64,000 nucleotides of DNA from NCBI GenBank assembly GCA_950106755.1, contig OX467082.1, positions 22,072,001-22,136,000 of the forward strand. Direction: 5' to 3'. Below are positions 2,664-63,627 of the stretch, in pieces (the stretch's first letter is position 1; every line of letters begins with the position of its first letter). The translations under genes were made by a program, and so were the position numbers. Below the pieces are notes generated by a model, which ran no database searches, was not told where the DNA came from, and was given only the letters and a program-made list of their open reading frames with translations. Origin of the DNA: Climacium dendroides (lineage: Eukaryota; Streptophyta; Bryopsida; Hypnales; Climaciaceae).

Positions 2664-3360
2664 CCAAATCAAACCTTCATGTACGATAGATCAATCCATC
2701 AATCCTTCATGTACAATAGATCAATCAAACTTTCATGTATGATAGATCAATCAAACTTTCATGTATGATAGATCAATCCATCATCAAACCTTCATGTACC
2801 TTCAAACTTTCATGTATGATACATCAAACCTTCATGTACCTTCAAACTTTCATGTATGATAGATCAATCCATCATCAAACCTTCATGTACCTTCAAACTT
2901 TCATGTATGATACATCAAACCTTCATGTACCTTCAAACTTTCATGTATGATAGATCAATCCATCATCAAACCTTCGTGTACCTTCATGTACAATAGATCA
3001 ATCCATCATCAAACCTTTATGTACCAATCCATCATCAAACCTTCATGTACAATAGATCAATCCATCATCAAACCTTCATGTACCAATCCATCATCAAACC
3101 TTCATGTACAATAGATCAATCCATCATCAAATCTTCATGTACAATAGATCAATCCATCATCAAACCTTTATGTACCAATCCATCATCAAAACTTCATGTA
3201 CGATAGATCAATCCTTTATGTACCAATCCATCATCAAACCTTCATGTACGAAGGATCAATCCATCAAACCTTCATGTACAATAGATCAATCAAACTTTCA
3301 TGTACTATACATCAATCCATCATCAAACCTTCATGAATCCATCATCAAACCTTCATGTAG
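2664..3360. repeat. Minisatellite of CATCAAACCTTCATGTAC units
   Basis: About 0.7 kb is built from two alternating modules, ATCAAACCTTCATGTAC and AATAGATCAATCC, in varying order and spacing, so the array is a higher-order mixture rather than a simple monomer. Open frames of 71 and 87 codons on the plus strand are repetitive readings of these modules and not genes. The array ends abruptly near 3360 at the next duplicated segment. Confidence 0.9.
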
Positions 3361-3367
3361 AGATTGA

Positions 3368-3580
3368 AGGTTTGTTTTTGTGTTGATTTTTTTTGACACA
3401 CATGTATTGAACAACACATTTACAAAGGATTCCATTAGGTAAAGAGACTAATTTCACACTAAATATTTCGTTTTTAGGTTTGTTTTTGTGTTGAATTTTT
3501 TTTTACACACATGTTGAACAACACACTACAAGGAGAGGGTCCCCATGAGGTAGAGAGGCTAATTTCACGTTAGATAAACC
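3368..3580. repeat. Direct duplication, 2 x about 108 bp
   Basis: The segment starting AGGTTTGTTTTTGTGTTGA at 3368 recurs at 3476. Both copies continue with a T-run, an ACACACATGT stretch and GAACAACACA, and end in a segment like CTAATTTCAC. Divergence is moderate, so this is older than the 71-bp duplication to the left. Confidence 0.8.
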
Positions 3581-9570: not shown

Positions 9571-10303
9571 AGGGTAGGAGGTTCTATAATGGCTCAGCCT
9601 CTAAAATAGCTCACCTCCTTAAATGTACACTCTTTCTACATGCTGTCATTTTTCATTCATAGCCTTCACACAGCAAGCAACGTACAAACATGCGGTGTAC
9701 ATTTCAAGAGGTCGGCGATTTCAGAGCCCCCTCTGCCATTTCAACTTCAGAAATTTCATAACTAATTCCACAAAGCTCCGAAAAAACATGAAAACGACTT
9801 GGGTTAAGGTAGAACTACCCATTACCACCATTTGCCCAATTCCCCCACCACCACCACAGGTTCCTCCCATTTCCGTCACTGGCCCATCTTATCACCACAA
9901 TCTTACGCATCCATGATCATGATGGCAATCAGCACTGGGGAGCGGACACATCAGCCCACGCTTCAACAATGGTCTGGTCATGCTTTACCAAGGGTCTACT
10001 CACAGTTTTACATTTCATCTTTGGAAAATCACAAAAAATCCAATTCTTGTCAGAATGTCTTCATTTTTTTTGCAATTGACTTCTCTCAAACAATTCAATC
10101 TCTGAAAAATATGAGAACTCATCAATAGCTTCTCCAAAGTACCTAGATAGCAAATCTGTATGGTAATGGGTAGTTCTACCTTAGATGCCAATTCCAGTTC
10201 TCTTTCAAAGGAAAATCTACTGAAAGTTATGATTTCTTTCTAGAAGCTTCACCTCCTCCAAATTCCAGTTGGTGAGTGGGGCGATTTATGGGCCTCCTAC
10301 CTT
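9571..10303 (-). mobile_element. MITE family A, copy interrupted by another MITE
   Basis: The ends read AGGGTAGGAGGTTCTATAAT (left, after a TA at 9569-9570) and GGCCTCCTACCT (right), an inverted repeat. The body matches the uninterrupted copy at 22926-23249 in reverse orientation, including the blocks AAATGTACAC, CATGCTG and GACTTGGGTTA. Homology breaks at 9806 and resumes at 10182, exactly at the ends of a second TIR element. It is non-coding. Confidence 0.75.
9807..10181. mobile_element. Nested 375-bp MITE with TA target duplication
   Basis: The terminal inverted repeats are perfect for 21 bases: left begins AGGTAGAACTACCCATTACC and right is its exact reverse complement. TA lies directly outside each end (9805-9806 and 10182-10183). 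The uninterrupted form of the host sequence, GGGTTAGATG, is present at 35348-35357 and in reverse near 23044, so the window itself shows the empty site. No transposase is encoded. TA duplication suggests a Tc1/mariner-type mobiliser, but the terminus is not the usual Stowaway one. Confidence 0.88.
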
Positions 10304-22925: not shown

Positions 22926-23249
22926 AAGGTAGGAGGTTCACAAAGCGCCCACCTAAGGAGCTGAAACTGAATTTTGGGGAGGTGATGCTTGATGAAATAT
23001 TTTTCAAGTAAATTTTCCTTGAAAGACAAGTGGAATTAGCATCTAACCCAAGTCGTTTCATATTTTTTGAAGCTTTGCGGAATTAGTTATGAAATTTTGA
23101 AGTTGAAATGGCATAGGGCTCTAAAATCGCCCACTGCCTATAGTGTATACATTGCTGAAGGCTATGAAAAAAGCAGCATGTATAAAAAAGCGCACATTTG
23201 AGGAGGTAGGCGGTTTTAGGGCATGTGTGCTTTTAGAACCTCCTACCTT
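22926..23249 (+). mobile_element. MITE family A, uninterrupted reference copy
   Basis: The termini AAGGTAGGAGGTTCACAAAG (left) and, reverse-complemented, AAGGTAGGAGGTTCTAAAAG (right) form a 14-base perfect inverted repeat. The 324-bp body has no gene. It is the intact reference for copies interrupted by other elements at 9571-10303 and 34145-35447, and relatives occur at 23626-23830 and 32692-32987. A TA directly follows the right end; the left flank has lost it. Confidence 0.78.
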
Positions 23250-34144: not shown

Positions 34145-35447
34145 AAGACCAAGGTTGTACAATGGCTTAGATTTTAAAATGGCTCACCTCCTCAAGTGTA
34201 CACTATTTGTACAGTGGGGTACAGCTCAATTACGAATTCTTGCATTCACAGTGAAAAAAAAGTTCACTGCTGCCCACTTTGACGCCCTCCCGAGGGCTGA
34301 AAAATTAATATTTTCTCACGAATTTTTTTTTACAAGATCCTCTTTATGCTAATAACATATGTGCCAAATTTCAAGTCCAAAAAATTTATACAAAAAAAGA
34401 TATTCAAACATGTACCAACATGTGTTGTTCAAAAAAAAATTTCACTAATACCAACTTTGACACCCTCCCAAAAATTGAAAAAAAAAGTTTTGGCCTTGAA
34501 ATTTTTGGTGTAAGATAAACTTAGTGAAACTAACTTATGTACAAAACTTCAAGTTCAAAAAAATTTCCCACAAAGAGTAGTTCAACTTCTACCAACATGT
34601 GTAGTTATGAATTTTTTTTCCATAACAACACATGCTGGTAGATTTTGAATATATCTTTTTTTAAGTAAATCTTTTGGCCTTGAAATTTCACACACATATT
34701 ACCAACATAGAGGTGATCTCATGCCAAAAATTTCATGGTACATAAACAATTTTTTTGCCCTTGGGAGGGTGTCAAAGTTGGGCCATAGTGAAATTGTTTC
34801 TCATGGCTACACCTATCAATTGGTAGAAGTTGAACTACTCTTTGTGGGAAATTTTTTTGAACTTGAAATTTTGCACATTAGTTAGTTTCACTAAGTTTAT
34901 CTTACACCAAAAATTTCAAGGCCAAAACTTTTTTTTTCAATTTTTGGGAGGGTGTCAAAGTTGGTATTAGTGAAATTTTTTTTTGAACAACACATGTTGG
35001 TACATGTTTGAATATCTTTTTTTGTATAAATTTTTTGGACTTGAAATTTGGCACATATGTTATTAGCATAAAGAGGATCTTGTAAAAAAAAATTCGTGAG
35101 AAAATATTAATTTTTCAGCCCTCGGGAGGGCGTCAAAGTGGGCAGCAGTGAACTTTTTTTTCACTGTGAATGCAAGAATTCGTAATTGAGCTGTACCCCA
35201 CTGTACATGCTGCTTTTTTTCATAGCCTTCAACAATGTTATAGATAGTGCCCATTTTAGGAGGTGAACCAGTTTTAGAGCCTTCTGCCATTCAACTTCAA
35301 AATTTTATTACTAATTCCTCGAAGCTCCAAAAAACATGAAATGACTTGGGTTAGATGTCAATTCCACTTGTCTTTCAAAGAAAATTTACTGGAAAAATAT
35401 TTGAAGATGTTTCACCTCCCCAAAATTCAGTTTCAGCGCTTAGGTAC
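34145..35447 (-). mobile_element. MITE family A, copy split by a 992-bp palindromic element
   Basis: The flanks of the palindrome join into one family A sequence. The left part is 34145-34211 (ATGGCTCACCTCCTCAAGTG) and the right part is 35204-35447 (CATGCTGC, then GACTTGGGTTAGATGTC, then CCTCCCCAAAATTCAGTTTC). Compared with 22926-23249 the sequence is continuous except for the insertion. The outermost terminus on the right is degraded. Confidence 0.75.
34212..35203. mobile_element. 992-bp foldback element with near-identical 382-bp arms, TA duplication
   Basis: The element begins CAGTGGGGTACAGCTCAATT and ends with its exact reverse complement, with TA outside both ends (34210-34211, 35204-35205). 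The arms (about 34212-34593 and 34822-35203) match almost base for base, so a plus-strand 65-codon and a minus-strand 75-codon frame share a 47-residue tail. That is a symmetry effect and not a gene. A motif GGGAGGG(T/C)GTCAAAGT recurs five times, twice in one orientation and three times in the other. Related empty sites exist at 9637-9638 and 23181-23182. No transposase. CAGTG ends plus TA suggest Tc1/mariner or pogo mobilisation, by inference. Confidence 0.88.
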
Positions 35448-36314: not shown

Positions 36315-36816
36315 GAGCATCCGTAGTACAACCTGGTATATTAGCCAGTAACTGTATAATTAACTTTTGAACAATAAATAATTAGAACTTGATAATTGTC
36401 TCACTGGAAGTGCATCCAAAAGATCATGGAGAAGGTACCGAAAAAAATTCAAAATTACACATTGGATAAGTACTTCAAAAGCAAGGTAAAAATTTGAAAT
36501 CATAAAAGTCTTAGCAAATCACAGTTACCAAAGCATGATTTGGCCATTGCCCCTCTAAATGTAGCCAAATGTGGAGGTTCAATGGCAAAATGTTGCTTTG
36601 GTAACCGTGATTTGCTAAGACCTCTATAATGTCAGATTTTTACCTTGCTTTTGAAGTACTTGTCCAATGTCTAATTTTGAATTTTTTTTTGAACCTTCTC
36701 CATGTTCTTTTGGATGTGCTTTCAATGAGACAATTTTCAAGTTCTAATTATTTACCATTCAAAAGTTAGTTATATTGTTACTAGCCAATATATTAGGAAT
36801 GCACTACAGATGCTCT
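36315..36816. mobile_element. 502-bp Tourist-like (PIF/Harbinger) foldback MITE
   Basis: The left end is GAGCATCCGTAGTACAACCT. The reverse complement of the right end is GAGCATCTGTAGTGCATTCC. Similarity continues along most of each arm, so the element is nearly a full hairpin. TAA lies directly outside both ends (36312-36314, 36817-36819), the three-base target duplication known for PIF/Harbinger. It encodes nothing. A dead Harbinger transposase lies at 55675-57115 in the same window. Confidence 0.88.
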
Positions 36817-43236: not shown

Positions 43237-43477
43237 CATCACAAAATTTAACCTTACAGTTTGTCAACAATTATCATGTGGTTATCGTTGTTTCATGAGT
43301 TTGCATGTTAATTATAATTTATCACATCATTACAGTGCATTACTTTGCATCGTTACTATGCAGTTGCAAGTAATGCATTGTAATGATGCAATAAATTATA
43401 ATTAACGTGCGAACCCATGAAATAACAATAACCACATGATAATTGTTGACAAATTGGAGGGTCTAAACTTTGTGATG
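43237..43477. mobile_element. 241-bp foldback MITE with TA duplication
   Basis: The ends are CATCACAAAATTTAACCTTA and, reverse-complemented, CATCACAAAGTTTAGACCCT, with TA outside both (43235-43236, 43478-43479). The arms pair almost to the centre, sharing TTGTCAACAATTATCATGTG and TTAATTATAATTTAT. No coding sequence. Confidence 0.85.
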
Positions 43478-52032: not shown

Positions 52033-52961
52033 TTAACCCCTAAATTCCAGGTGTTTTGCCTGGCATTTAACCCTGAAATTCATTGACATCCATACTGCAG
52101 ACGATGGAGAGATTTGAACTGCGAGTACTATCAAGAAAAAGCCCCCCATTGTTGCAGTATTGTTTCAATGGGTTAACAATATAGTACTGAAAGTATATTG
52201 TTGCAATACTGCAAACAATATTCTTTCAATAAATCTGCAATGCACCTATTGAAAATATATTGTTGCAATACTTTTTGCAGTACTGCAACAATATGCTTTC
52301 AGTAGTATACTGTTAACCCATTGAAACAATACTGCAGCAGTACTAAAGCAATGGGCTTTTTCTTGATAGTACACTACTGTCAGTATTCAGGCAGCAAGTA
52401 TTTTTCATTCATCCATTTTTTTAGGGCGTGATGAACGTACTTCAAATTTTGGTAAATGAAGAAGAAATACAAAGGTATTAACCTTTAATGCACATTTCAT
52501 GTCCAGGCTTGGTCACAATTCTGTAGATTTCTATGCTAAAACATAGATTCCAAAAATTCGATATTTTTCACATCTTAATAATGTATGTCTACAATTTAAT
52601 CTCATTTTTTCATAACTAAAAACATCAAATTGAATTTTATACGACTTTAATAAGAATATTTTTTGTATAAAAATCATAGTAATTACAAAAATGCTACTCC
52701 TTGAGATTACACCAAGAGAATTTCTATATAAAAAGTTTAAAAGTGGTGTATTTTGAGCTTTCAAGATGTTGTCTTGAAAGTGTTACAAAAATTATAATTT
52801 TAACAATTTAAGAAAAAAATGAAAATGGAGTAAAAAGTTTAATATTGGAGTCATATTTTTTTAAATTAAGCTTTAAAACATTTAGAATCAAGAACTATGT
52901 AAAAATTCAAGCTTTGACTTTTTAAATGCATGAGGGGTTTGCATTGTCCTTTAAGGGTTAA
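52033..52961. mobile_element. TTAACCCC-family TIR element, 929 bp, with nested MITE
   Basis: It starts TTAACCCCTAAATTCC and ends GTCCTTTAAGGGTTAA, an imperfect inverted repeat like those of 11755-12660. The left part is interrupted by a 242-bp hairpin element at 52128-52369. The minus-strand 77-codon frame inside has no motif. Confidence 0.55.
52128..52369. mobile_element. 242-bp hairpin MITE with TA duplication
   Basis: The ends CTATCAAGAAAAAGCCC and GGGCTTTTTCTTGATAG are perfect inverses over 17 bases, with TA outside each (52126-52127, 52370-52371). The arms continue to pair through GCAGTATTGTTTCAATGGGT and, nearer the centre, ATATTGTTGCAATACT. The interior is full of GTTGCA(A/G)TACTGCA repeats. 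Non-coding. Confidence 0.87.
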
Positions 52962-57401: not shown

Positions 57402-57561
57402 GTGTTGAAAATGACCAAACCATGTCATATGGATTTTGTTGAGTTCCTAGTTTTCAACGTTCAAATTCTATGTTGAAGATTGCATTTCAACATAGAATTT
57501 CAATGTTGGAAATTAGAAACTCAACCAAATCCATATGATATGGTTTGGTCATCAACGACGC
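57402..57561. mobile_element. 160-bp hairpin MITE
   Basis: The left arm GTTGAAAATGACCAAACCAT and the right arm GGTTTGGTCATCAACG are inverse. Pairing continues through CATATGGATTT(T/G)GTTGAGTT to a central AATTCTATGTTGAA / TTCAACATAGAATT. No clear target duplication is seen. A GC-richer patch with GCGAGC-type sequence follows (57561-57625). Confidence 0.75.
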
Positions 57562-61446: not shown

Positions 61447-63627
61447 CATTTGCATGAAGCCTCCCCATTGTCGGTATCTGAAATGCCAAAATGCCAGTCA
61501 ATGCTCCAAGTGATGAAGTGCATCTTCAGTGGCAACTCCCGATGATAACCACCATGATCGAATTGCTAGGTAACGTGTCTCTGCCTCCTTCATAGATTTA
61601 GCATCTTTATATTGTTTGCAAAGTGCATTGTGTTGTTGTTGGAAGACTTCCTTAATGTACTTTTGAGTGTGTTTTTGGAGAGAAGTACTTCAATGAAGTA
61701 AGCATGTCCTCTCCCTATTCTCCATTTTTTCATTCCCAGATCTACTTCCGTAGAAAATTCGAACTGCATTCCAATTGGCCATAGCACTATCTGCCATGAA
61801 CCCTTTGAAGTTTGGGTGATCTAGTCTATGTTTTGACATTACCGCATTCAATGACCTCCAGAATTGCACTTAAATCTCCGTATCTTCGGACTGCATATTG
61901 CATGTTGCAATGGTCATGACCTTCTTGTACTCAAAATCGTACACATGGCAAGCCATTGTGGTCCATTCCTTCACACGCTTCACGTGGTCAAACATCATCC
62001 ATGCATTTTGCAGATCCCCCCCTGGTTGCATGCGCTTCACCAAATCTACTCCACTACTAGGTCCTTTAGTGAGCATCTTGAAAATGTATACTTTCTCCTT
62101 TCCTTGTCCAAGGAAAACGCTATCATGAATAAACTTAAACTTTGAGTCTCTCTTCATGGTCATAATGTTGTCTATGACTTCTCCTCTATTATTTGAGCGA
62201 AATGAAGAAATCACATTACGAATGTTTGGACTGCTCAAGTATTGGAAACGATCCATCACTTCCTCCAATTCCTCACCTTCCAACATCTTCTTCTTTCCAT
62301 TTCCGCTGTGGAATAGATAATTTGTAAGGAAGTCTTTGCTTGCTGATAGAGCAATGGCGGAATTTGAGTCCGTCGGTGTTTTAGACACCTGCTCTGCAAT
62401 CAACTCACAAATCTTCTCTGCAAAATCTCTGTACATGCCCTTGGCAACAGGGTGAGCATGATGTCTGAAATGAATAGCGGCCCTAGTCATTTTCACATTC
62501 TCACTATAGCAGTAGTACATCCTAGCATTACAAGTGCTAAGACACACAAGTGTTTTTCTACAGAGTTTGCAAACTAGAGTACAGTCTTTGGGAGGAGTCT
62601 CCCCTACTGTGAAAGCAAAAGTTGTTGCACCAGTCCACTTAGTTTCGTTGCGTTTTGAAGCCCTCTTTAGATAGTCACACTCTAGATTCACACAAACAAG
62701 ATGTCCAGCACAGTATGACTTATGGAACTTCAACTTGTCGGAATTGTGGATGTTAGTTGTCACCAACTTGCACCATGGGTGTCCATCATATCTCTTATCC
62801 ATTCCTTCTAAGTTCTTGGTTGCTGATGAAGAAGCAGATGAACGACATGGAGGCAACTCAAATATGACATTTCCATTGAAAACGGGTGGAAGAAACTACA
62901 CACGATGGTGCTTCATGCTATTCAAATATGTCATTGACAACTTGTTCCTTGAGCAATGCATTCTGCCTAATCTTCTCAGATACTCCATTATGCTTTCTCG
63001 ATTGACTACGTCTGGATACAACGGAGGACGAGACAAGTCAGTCTGATCTAGACTGCATGACAAGGTCTTTGACACTGACTTCACCATAGCACTTTCGTCC
63101 ACTGTATCTTTCATAGTACATACCTTTTTTTGAAACGCTAAGTCGGGAGATTCTGCTTCTAATTCACTAGACAACTCTATGATGGTTTCTAACTTCTCAA
63201 TTTTCACTGATCGAAGAATTGTATTTTCAAGAAGCATTGGAGATACTTCACAAGGAAGACTAGGTGAATCCATATGAACGACGTATGGCATATCTACGCT
63301 GGAGTTATCAGAGTGACAACTTCGAATCTCAGTTGATGGAACTACCATAGACAACGGTAGTCCATAAGCTCTATAGTTTCCAATAGAGAGGTATCAACAA
63401 TGACCTTCTTTTACAGACTTCACAACTGGAATTGATTGTTGCACTTCTCCTGAATTTGACATTCTTTCTTCTTCAACATAGATGGAGGATTCCACGAATC
63501 TGAAGCGGACATATAATAGATGGCTCAATACTCTAGCATATCCACCTTCCTCTATTGGAAACTCTAAGGGAATGTCATGACCATCTACACGAATGCAAGC
63601 CATGATACAATCTTTGCTTAAACACAA
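61447..63627 (-). pseudogene. MULE-like transposase pseudogene, first exon (zinc-cluster plus DDE region)
   Basis: One reading frame runs 727 codons from 63627 (likely start ATG at 63601-63603, MACIRVDGHDIPLEFP) to a splice donor ATG/GTAAGA at 61447, broken only by five stops: TGA 63394-63396, TAG 62896-62898, TAA 61870-61872, TGA 61690-61692 and TGA 61498-61500. No frameshift is seen. A Cys/His-rich domain comes first (YCAGHLVCVNLECDYL; CKLCRKTLVCLSTC; RAAIHFRHHAHPV), resembling the WRKY-GCM1 zinc fingers of Mutator transposases. Then come LVKRMQPGGDLQNAWMMFDH and WTTMACHVYD, which I read as the first DDE strand, FKGFMADSAMANWNAVRIFY with the second Asp, and NRERTCLLH. Function inferred: cut-and-paste transposase, now inactive. 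The assignment to MULE is by motif order only. Confidence 0.72.

What the first reader, a model, noticed from the sequence alone, without database searches (positions are those of the whole stretch)
34212..35203. Near-perfect 992-bp palindromic transposon with related empty sites in the same window
Seen directly: 382-bp arms almost identical, CAGTGGGGTACAGC ends, TA outside both. The interrupted family A sequence is found without insertion at 9637-9638 and 23181-23182, where TA is followed by CATGCTG. Such arm identity implies recent movement or active gene conversion, and a transcript would fold into a long double-stranded RNA, a natural siRNA source. Five copies of GGGAGGG(T/C)GTCAAAGT in mirrored orientation add an internal structure not typical of ordinary MITEs.
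Basis: partly seen in the sequence, partly recalled or inferred. Interest (0 to 1): 0.75.

Follow-up and report, generated by a model that had tools for sequence, protein, structure and literature searches.

The report
Palindromic Tc1-like plant jumping gene
A 992-base near-palindrome in a plant genome is a young, gene-less jumping element that looks cut down from a Tc1-type transposon with long repetitive arms, and its two arms appear to have copied changes from one another as it spread.

Summary
In detail: 34212-35203 is a 992-bp near-palindrome (384-bp arms, 3 mismatches) flanked by TA, with two related empty sites in the window. It is a non-autonomous Tc1-like (DD34E) element. About 68 close copies exist. 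All 59 full-length copies aligned have TA on both sides, and 47 of 59 lie in TGTACA. The five mirrored GGGAGGGYGTCAAAGT motifs are inherited: a larger Tc1-like element in the same genome has 943-bp arms of five ~180-bp units with the motif at matching places. The 992-bp element aligns to the outer parts of both its arms (about 70%), so it looks like an internal-deletion derivative.

An older subfamily carries the 28-bp tip of a different Tc1-like lineage; the young burst has three tip bases changed in both arms, to those of the long-arm lineage. Subfamily changes and some private variants are mirrored in the arms, so arms probably exchange sequence. The insertion target is palindromic. High arm identity itself mainly reflects a recent burst: arms differ about as much as copies do. 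Small RNAs and the responsible transposase were not testable. A new variant of a known kind.

The parts
34210..34211 (.). left TA target-site copy; the pre-insertion site reads TGTACA
34212..34595 (+). left arm (384 bp), two ~178-bp units
34212..34239 (+). left 28-bp tip, CAGTGGGGTACAGCTCAATTACGAATTC; positions 5, 6 and 10 differ from the older subfamily and from the L107-type element
34276..34291 (-). unit motif GGGAGGGCGTCAAAGT, unit 1 left
34454..34469 (-). unit motif GGGAGGGTGTCAAAGT, unit 2 left
34596..34819 (+). 224-bp centre holding the third right-hand unit
34763..34778 (+). unit motif, unit 3 right
34820..35203 (-). right arm (384 bp), two ~178-bp units
34946..34961 (+). unit motif, unit 2 right
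35124..35139 (+). unit motif, unit 1 right
35176..35203 (-). right 28-bp tip
35204..35205 (.). right TA target-site copy
9637..9638 (+). TA of a related empty site in a family A copy
23181..23182 (-). TA of a second related empty site in a family A copy

Best explanation
It is a non-autonomous Tc1-like (IS630-Tc1-mariner, DD34E) element that arose by internal deletion of a long-arm Tc1-like transposon of this genome. It keeps two arm units on the left and three on the right, and moves by cut-and-paste when a Tc1-like transposase supplied in trans binds its tips and perhaps its repeated unit motifs, inserting at TA within TGTACA. Its long arms exchange sequence with each other, which spreads a change in one arm to the other and keeps both ends alike. 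Shown: anatomy, TA duplication, target preference, copy number, recent burst, homology to transposase-bearing elements, mirrored changes. Inferred: mobilisation in trans, which transposase does it, what the unit motif binds, and the molecular route of arm exchange.
For: Copies: a 31-base stretch of the centre is found 89 times at up to 3 mismatches, about 68 of these in close copies. 61 of the 68 were fetched, all proved to be copies, and 59 were aligned at full length, 988-994 bp. TA on both sides in 59 of 59; 4 of 59 contradict a GTAC duplication. Target TGTACA in 47 of 59 against 37 of 4713 TA sites in the window. Five copies (L045, L056, L057, L058, L074) sit at the same TA of one ~220-bp host repeat whose copies are 79-92% alike, with the centre in both orientations, as expected of separate insertions. 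Relatives: the L106 element (C39:19818047-19821477) is 3431 bp with 943-bp arms 98.8% alike, motifs at 64, 240, 428, 607 and 797 of each arm, and a DDE_3 match inside. This element has motifs at 65 and 243 on the left, 65, 243 and 426 on the right, and aligns to L106-element bases 33-395 (71%) and 2835-3431 (70%). The 3' arm of an element with an intact 336-aa transposase frame has motifs at 64, 241, 431, 609, 799. The L107 element (C34:10818187-10820122) has DDE_3 and the same 28-bp tip as the older subfamily. L099, of the L106 type, has DDE_3 and 34 residues between the second D and E; so does L097, an intact Tc1-like transposase of another family of this genome, which also has HTH_Tnp_Tc3_2 and matches Sleeping Beauty transposase in the PDB, E 2e-27. 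No stop-to-stop frame of 110 codons lies in the element. Arm exchange: set out in the full report.
Against: No transposase-bearing element with exactly the young tip was seen: by eye no two listed facing ends are more than 1.2 kb apart within one element, but only 100 of 161 ends are listed, and one search is negative only for exact matches. Identity to the long-arm elements is only about 70%, so the parent itself is not in hand. For the 336-aa family only one arm was read; 711 bp on the other side of its gene showed no unit and no match to that arm. No expression, small-RNA or excision data.
Confidence: 0.92

Rival explanations
1. The arms are alike only because all copies descend from one recent, already symmetric source; there is no exchange between arms.
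For: Young-group arm-arm difference (1.01%) is close to copy-copy difference (0.93%); most variants are one-sided (107 one-sided, 10 two-sided copy-sites in the young group).
Against: Five pairs of subfamily differences are mirrored in the two arms. Mirrored variants in the young group exceed random pairing of arms: 10 against mean 0.8, maximum 7 in 1000 shuffles, A/T runs left out. Within-copy distance 0.691% is below all 5000 permutations (minimum 0.737%). L070 has no arm mismatch although it differs from the consensus at 26 sites. Two of 53 young copies have the derived left-arm haplotype in both arms and one has it on the other side.
Confidence: 0.12
2. Mirrored variants are an assembly artefact: polishing with reads that map to both arms copied variants across.
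For: Arms of 384 bp at 99% identity exceed usual short-read length, and I could not see reads.
Against: Most variants are not mirrored. Of the five mirrored subfamily pairs, three are in both arms of all 5 older copies and two in 4 of 5.
Confidence: 0.1
3. It is a pogo-like (DDE_1) derivative; pogo-like ends in plants also start with CAGT and duplicate TA (recalled, not from a call).
For: DDE_1 matches are many in this genome (150 scored of 486 candidates).
Against: A scan of the 20 fetched DDE_1 loci (L011-L030, 1.5 kb on each side, exact TACAGT required) found neither tip, while DDE_3 loci L100 and L107 had the older tip and L106 a related one; the arm units lie beside DDE_3 transposases.
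Confidence: 0.02
4. The 28-bp tip was not acquired from another lineage; an old long-arm element had it, and the L107 family later lost its long arms.
Against: The five long-arm elements whose tip was read (L106, the 336-aa one, L091, L092, L093) all have another sequence after position 11. Eleven L107-type elements have the short end: no unit by BLAST in L107 and L100, and closely similar 40 terminal bases in the other nine.
Confidence: 0.35

Closest known systems
PpTc1 and PpTc2, Tc1-like elements of the moss Physcomitrella patens (PMC4054914, parts 1-2 of 5 read)
   Same: CAGT...ACTG ends, TA duplication, DD34E transposase of 338 aa, recent amplification; a Physcomitrium patens Tc1-like protein is 53% identical to the L097 transposase of this genome
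   Different: 33-bp terminal repeats, 1,584 and 1,709 bp, transposase-bearing; no long repeated-unit arms and no non-autonomous palindrome in the parts read
Galileo of Drosophila (PMC3688188 abstract; PMC3573991 and PMC4168063 passages)
   Same: long, internally repetitive arms; copies reduced to two arms; exchange of sequence among copies proposed to make new subfamilies; [quoted passage not shown]
   Different: P superfamily, 7-bp duplication, THAP-domain transposase
Tetris foldback element of Drosophila virilis (PMC4079207, abstract and section list)
   Same: apparently non-autonomous, foldback-like, ~220-bp tandem repeats in the arms, final part of its arms shared with another element
   Different: an insect element whose superfamily I did not read; gave rise to satellite arrays, which I did not look for here
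Impala and Sleeping Beauty (fungal and fish Tc1-like elements; their ends and the IR/DR layout are recalled, not from a call)
   Same: CAGT ends and TA; Sleeping Beauty carries repeated transposase sites in long inverted repeats
   Different: here the repeated 16-mer is not an evident copy of the tip, and there are up to five per arm

Membership tests
Tc1-like (DD34E) branch of IS630-Tc1-mariner | 2-bp TA duplication | tested here: met
   59 of 59 full copies; empty sites with one TA
Tc1-like (DD34E) branch of IS630-Tc1-mariner | CAGT...ACTG ends | tested here: met
   young 14-mer exact at both ends in 45 of 59, at one end in 9, older tip in 5
Tc1-like (DD34E) branch of IS630-Tc1-mariner | DD34E transposase in elements with the same tip or homologous arms | tested here: met
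   L107 (older tip) and L106 (arms) carry DDE_3; 34 residues between second D and E in L099, of the L106 type, and L097. Not shown for an element with the exact young tip
Tc1-like (DD34E) branch of IS630-Tc1-mariner | moved by such a transposase | not testable with these tools
   needs an excision or binding assay
MITE | no coding capacity, uniform length, many copies from few sources | tested here: met
   no frame of 110 codons; 988-994 bp in 59 copies; about 68 close copies
MITE | short (usually under about 600-800 bp, recalled) | tested here: not met
   992 bp; better called a long-arm non-autonomous element
Foldback-type element (structural class) | arms make up most of the element and contain internal repeats | tested here: met
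   two 384-bp arms of 992; five units
IR/DR arrangement of Sleeping Beauty type | inner repeats are copies of the terminal transposase site | tested here: inconclusive
   the 16-mer and the tip look unlike by eye; no systematic scan or assay was done
pogo-like | DDE_1 transposase partner | tested here: not met
   tips absent from the 20 DDE_1 loci fetched, of 150 scored

The most novel reading that the evidence does not exclude
The element is a mosaic of two Tc1-like lineages whose catalytic regions are 53% identical. It has arms from a long-arm lineage and, in its older form, the 28-bp tip of a short-tip lineage. It then changed three tip bases to those of the long-arm lineage (CAGTGGGGTAC); arm-to-arm exchange put the change into both ends, and the re-tipped form made the later burst. 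Long palindromic arms would thus be a device that lets a non-autonomous element change its ends in step and switch transposase.
Probability: 0.3. Interest if true: 0.65.

Novelty: new variant of a known kind. Interest (0 to 1): 0.45.

Why it matters
Tc1-like elements were reported from plants only in 2014 (PMC4054914). This genome holds several lineages, some with intact transposase frames, and its long-arm elements share a multi-unit arm with a conserved motif about every 180 bp. The young non-autonomous family, with an older sister subfamily and an intermediate copy, gives a natural record of how both ends of a transposon can change together; this bears on how cut-and-paste elements keep their two ends matched while changing transposase specificity. 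A transcript would also be an almost perfect 0.4-kb hairpin, so the family is a clean test of hairpin-derived silencing.

Tried and rejected
Pogo (DDE_1) partner: the lead came from recalled CAGT-ended pogo-like elements; 20 fetched DDE_1 loci (of 150 scored) did not carry the tips. Four-base duplication GTAC: the palindromic context makes it look possible in one copy; 4 of 59 copies contradict it, none contradicts TA. A transposase-bearing element with exactly the young tip: not seen; TACAGTGGGGTACAGC followed by A, C or G does not occur as an exact match. Rfam: no match in the window at gathering scores. Mirrored private variants: 27 of 142 left-arm variants in the young group looked mirrored at first, but many lay in A/T runs where alignment is unsafe; with runs left out 10 remain, and 8 if recurrent site 56 is dropped. 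Literature: the listings showed no title or abstract start on a long-arm Tc1-like element with repeated units in a plant, nor on arm conversion in such an element; the library is partial and I read few papers, so this is not proof that none is in print.

Not examined: 7 of the 68 close copies (four on C41, C3:10198233, C34:16695359, C39:21221831) were never fetched and are in no count based on the alignment; three of the seven are seen by their arms, one by its ends, three by the 31-mer alone. L056 and L081 (other lengths) were fetched but left out of the alignment of 59; L095 and L096 were fetched and described only; L131 and L132, two further ends, were read for 191 bases each. One search lists 100 of 161 ends and one search lists 100 of 285. 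Searches of the genome score only the best candidates (40 of 445, 150 of 447, 40 of 256, 150 of 922).

Full report
Observation. The window lies at C1:22072001-22136000 of a 412.6-Mb genome. A frame in it matches MAP65/ASE1, a family I know as typical of plants; of the named proteins among the best 120 relatives of one transposase, the closest is from Physcomitrium patens, 53% identical. This hints at a moss, but the species was not established. The palindrome is as described: 992 bp, 384-bp arms with 3 mismatches, TA on both sides. Five 16-mers against 0.03 expected. The flanks joined over one TA align through to two copies of the host repeat in the window.

Copies and target. A 31-base stretch of the centre occurs 89 times at up to 3 mismatches: 65 exact, 4 with one, 5 with two, 15 with three. 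About 68 (the 65 and three of the four with one) are close copies; the fourth, in L094, and those with more mismatches in L091-L093 lie in diverged relatives that match in pieces at 65-87%. There are 161 ends at up to two mismatches. I fetched 61 of the 68 (the window copy); all 61 are copies, and I aligned the 59 of full length. All 59 have TA on each side. The target reads TGTACA in 47 of 59, AGTACA in 5, TGTACT in 3, TATACA in 2, TGTATA in 1, ACTACA in 1; in the window 37 of 4713 TA sites are TGTACA. Five copies are at the same TA of one host repeat whose copies are 79-92% alike, with the element in both orientations. At C40:4246625 an end of the long-arm type follows directly, across a TA, on the end of an L107-type element: the TGTACAGT made by each insertion is itself a target-like site.

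Two subfamilies. 53 copies form a young group (mean pairwise difference 0.93%, mean 0.50% from their consensus). Five (L032, L057, L070, L072, L076) have CAGTCAGGTCCAGC instead of CAGTGGGGTACAGC, with at most one decayed base per tip, and differ by 2.7% among themselves. L077 has the young tip and the older bases at the interior sites. Twelve sites separate the groups; ten of them are five mirrored pairs (5/988, 6/987, 10/983, 104/889, 105/888), one lies in an arm without its partner (881), one in the centre (608). The three tip pairs are in all 5 older copies, the other two pairs in 4 of 5. Polarity: at aligned sites 105 and 112 two outgroup arms carry the older group's base; at 104 neither group's; at 385 (the mirror of 608) one outgroup has a gap and the other carries the young base. 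With its greater divergence the older form is probably ancestral, but this is not proved. By the 1% per million years that PMC4054914 uses, 0.50% would be about half a million years, a borrowed and rough rate.

Where it comes from. The DDE_3 search gave 150 matches among 150 scored of 447 candidates. L107 is a Tc1-like element with 39-bp ends whose first 28 bases equal the older group's tip; its transposase is interrupted. The 22 ends of L107, L100 and nine further copies resemble CAGTCAGGTCC, some decayed; none has CAGTGGGG. L106 is an element of 3431 bp, arms 943 bp at 98.8% identity, five motifs per arm, DDE_3 inside, right tip CAGTGGGGTACC and left tip with one change; ends of this type occur 285 times at up to 3 mismatches. 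By eye, 17 pairs of facing ends in the 100 listed enclose a transposase match; 14 of the 17 have a stop in the matched stretch and the other three match only in part. A related family has an uninterrupted 336-aa frame in 18 of 150 listed hits. In the one copy read (C2), the 3' arm has motifs at 64, 241, 431, 609 and 799 and the tip CAGTAGGGTCC, but 711 bp on the 5' side of the gene showed no unit and no match to that arm, so a second arm was not seen. In 13 units from three sources the block CCAACTTTGACA.CCTCCC is among the best conserved stretches; spacing is 176-190 bp. The 992-bp element aligns to bases 33-395 (71%) and 2835-3431 (70%) of the L106 element, with motifs at matching places. 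Hence, most likely, an internal deletion of a long-arm element. Length variants carry 3, 4, 5 and 6 motifs (L095, L056, L096, L081), all with TA outside, so unit number changes.

Arms. In the young group arm-arm difference is 1.01%, close to copy-copy difference, so arm identity alone says little. Against independent arms: (a) the five mirrored subfamily pairs; (b) with A/T runs and sites 325 and 330 removed (292 of 384 positions), within-copy left-right distance is 0.691% against 0.811% between copies, below all 5000 permutations; for scale, left-left between copies is 0.909% and right-right 0.702%; (c) 10 mirrored variants against a shuffled mean of 0.8, maximum 7 in 1000, or 8 against 0.5, maximum 4, without site 56, while 107 variant copy-sites are one-sided; (d) at 325/330 a derived left-arm haplotype is present in 31 of 53 young copies, in both arms in 2 and on the other side in 1; 15 have the undivided older state and 4 are mixed; (e) L070 has identical arms although it has 26 differences from the consensus. 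Against complete homogenisation: L072 has 16 arm mismatches and L076 10. The effect in young copies is modest, and assembly error is not excluded.

Mechanism. Most likely a Tc1-like transposase acts in trans, pairs the tips, cuts at CAGT, and inserts at TA in TGTACA; repeated motifs in the arms may be further binding sites, as found for Galileo, where the first site lies about 70 bp from the end (PMC3688188, abstract). Arm exchange may occur by conversion between the arms or by template switching in repair. The three tip changes give the first 11 bases of the long-arm L106 tip, while bases 12-28 remain those of L107; this fits a change of transposase preference but does not prove it, and no element with exactly the young tip and a transposase was seen.

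Comparison. Tc1-like elements in plants were reported by Liu and Yang (PMC4054914, parts 1-2 of 5 read); those of P. patens resemble fungal elements (PMC7466625, passages). Long repetitive arms are known from Galileo and Tetris (PMC3573991 and PMC4168063 passages; PMC4079207 abstract). The combination here, a plant Tc1-like group with multi-unit arms and a non-autonomous palindrome with mirrored tip change, is a variant that I did not see in the listings.

Noticed in passing
window 36332-36797, 43251-43462, 52150-52339, 57411-57552: Four other inverted repeats with short centres (arms 67-229 nt, 85-90%), probably other hairpin-type elements.
   Followed up: no
window 9579-9806, about 22929-23246, and the host of the insertion around 34176-35440: Family A repeat; the copy near 22929-23246 has GTAGGAGGTTC-like sequence at both ends in inverted order, so it may itself be a non-autonomous element.
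   Followed up: partly
window 61873-62895, minus strand: Open frame of 341 codons without Pfam match but with 379 homologues at E up to 0.001, the best 71-76% identical and mostly on large contigs; a gene family of unknown kind.
   Followed up: partly
whole genome, PF03184 search: 150 pogo-like DDE_1 matches scored of 486 candidates, several in long open frames.
   Followed up: no
G000 C3:13951529-13952136, C2:6845577-6846169, C35:19761316-19761911: Paired ends like CAGTCAGGTCCAGCTGAATTAC about 0.6 kb apart: another non-autonomous family with an L107-like tip.
   Followed up: no
G000, one search list: 31 ends CAGTCAGGTCCAGTTCATTTAC without an evident partner in the list: perhaps a further family whose other end differs.
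   Followed up: no
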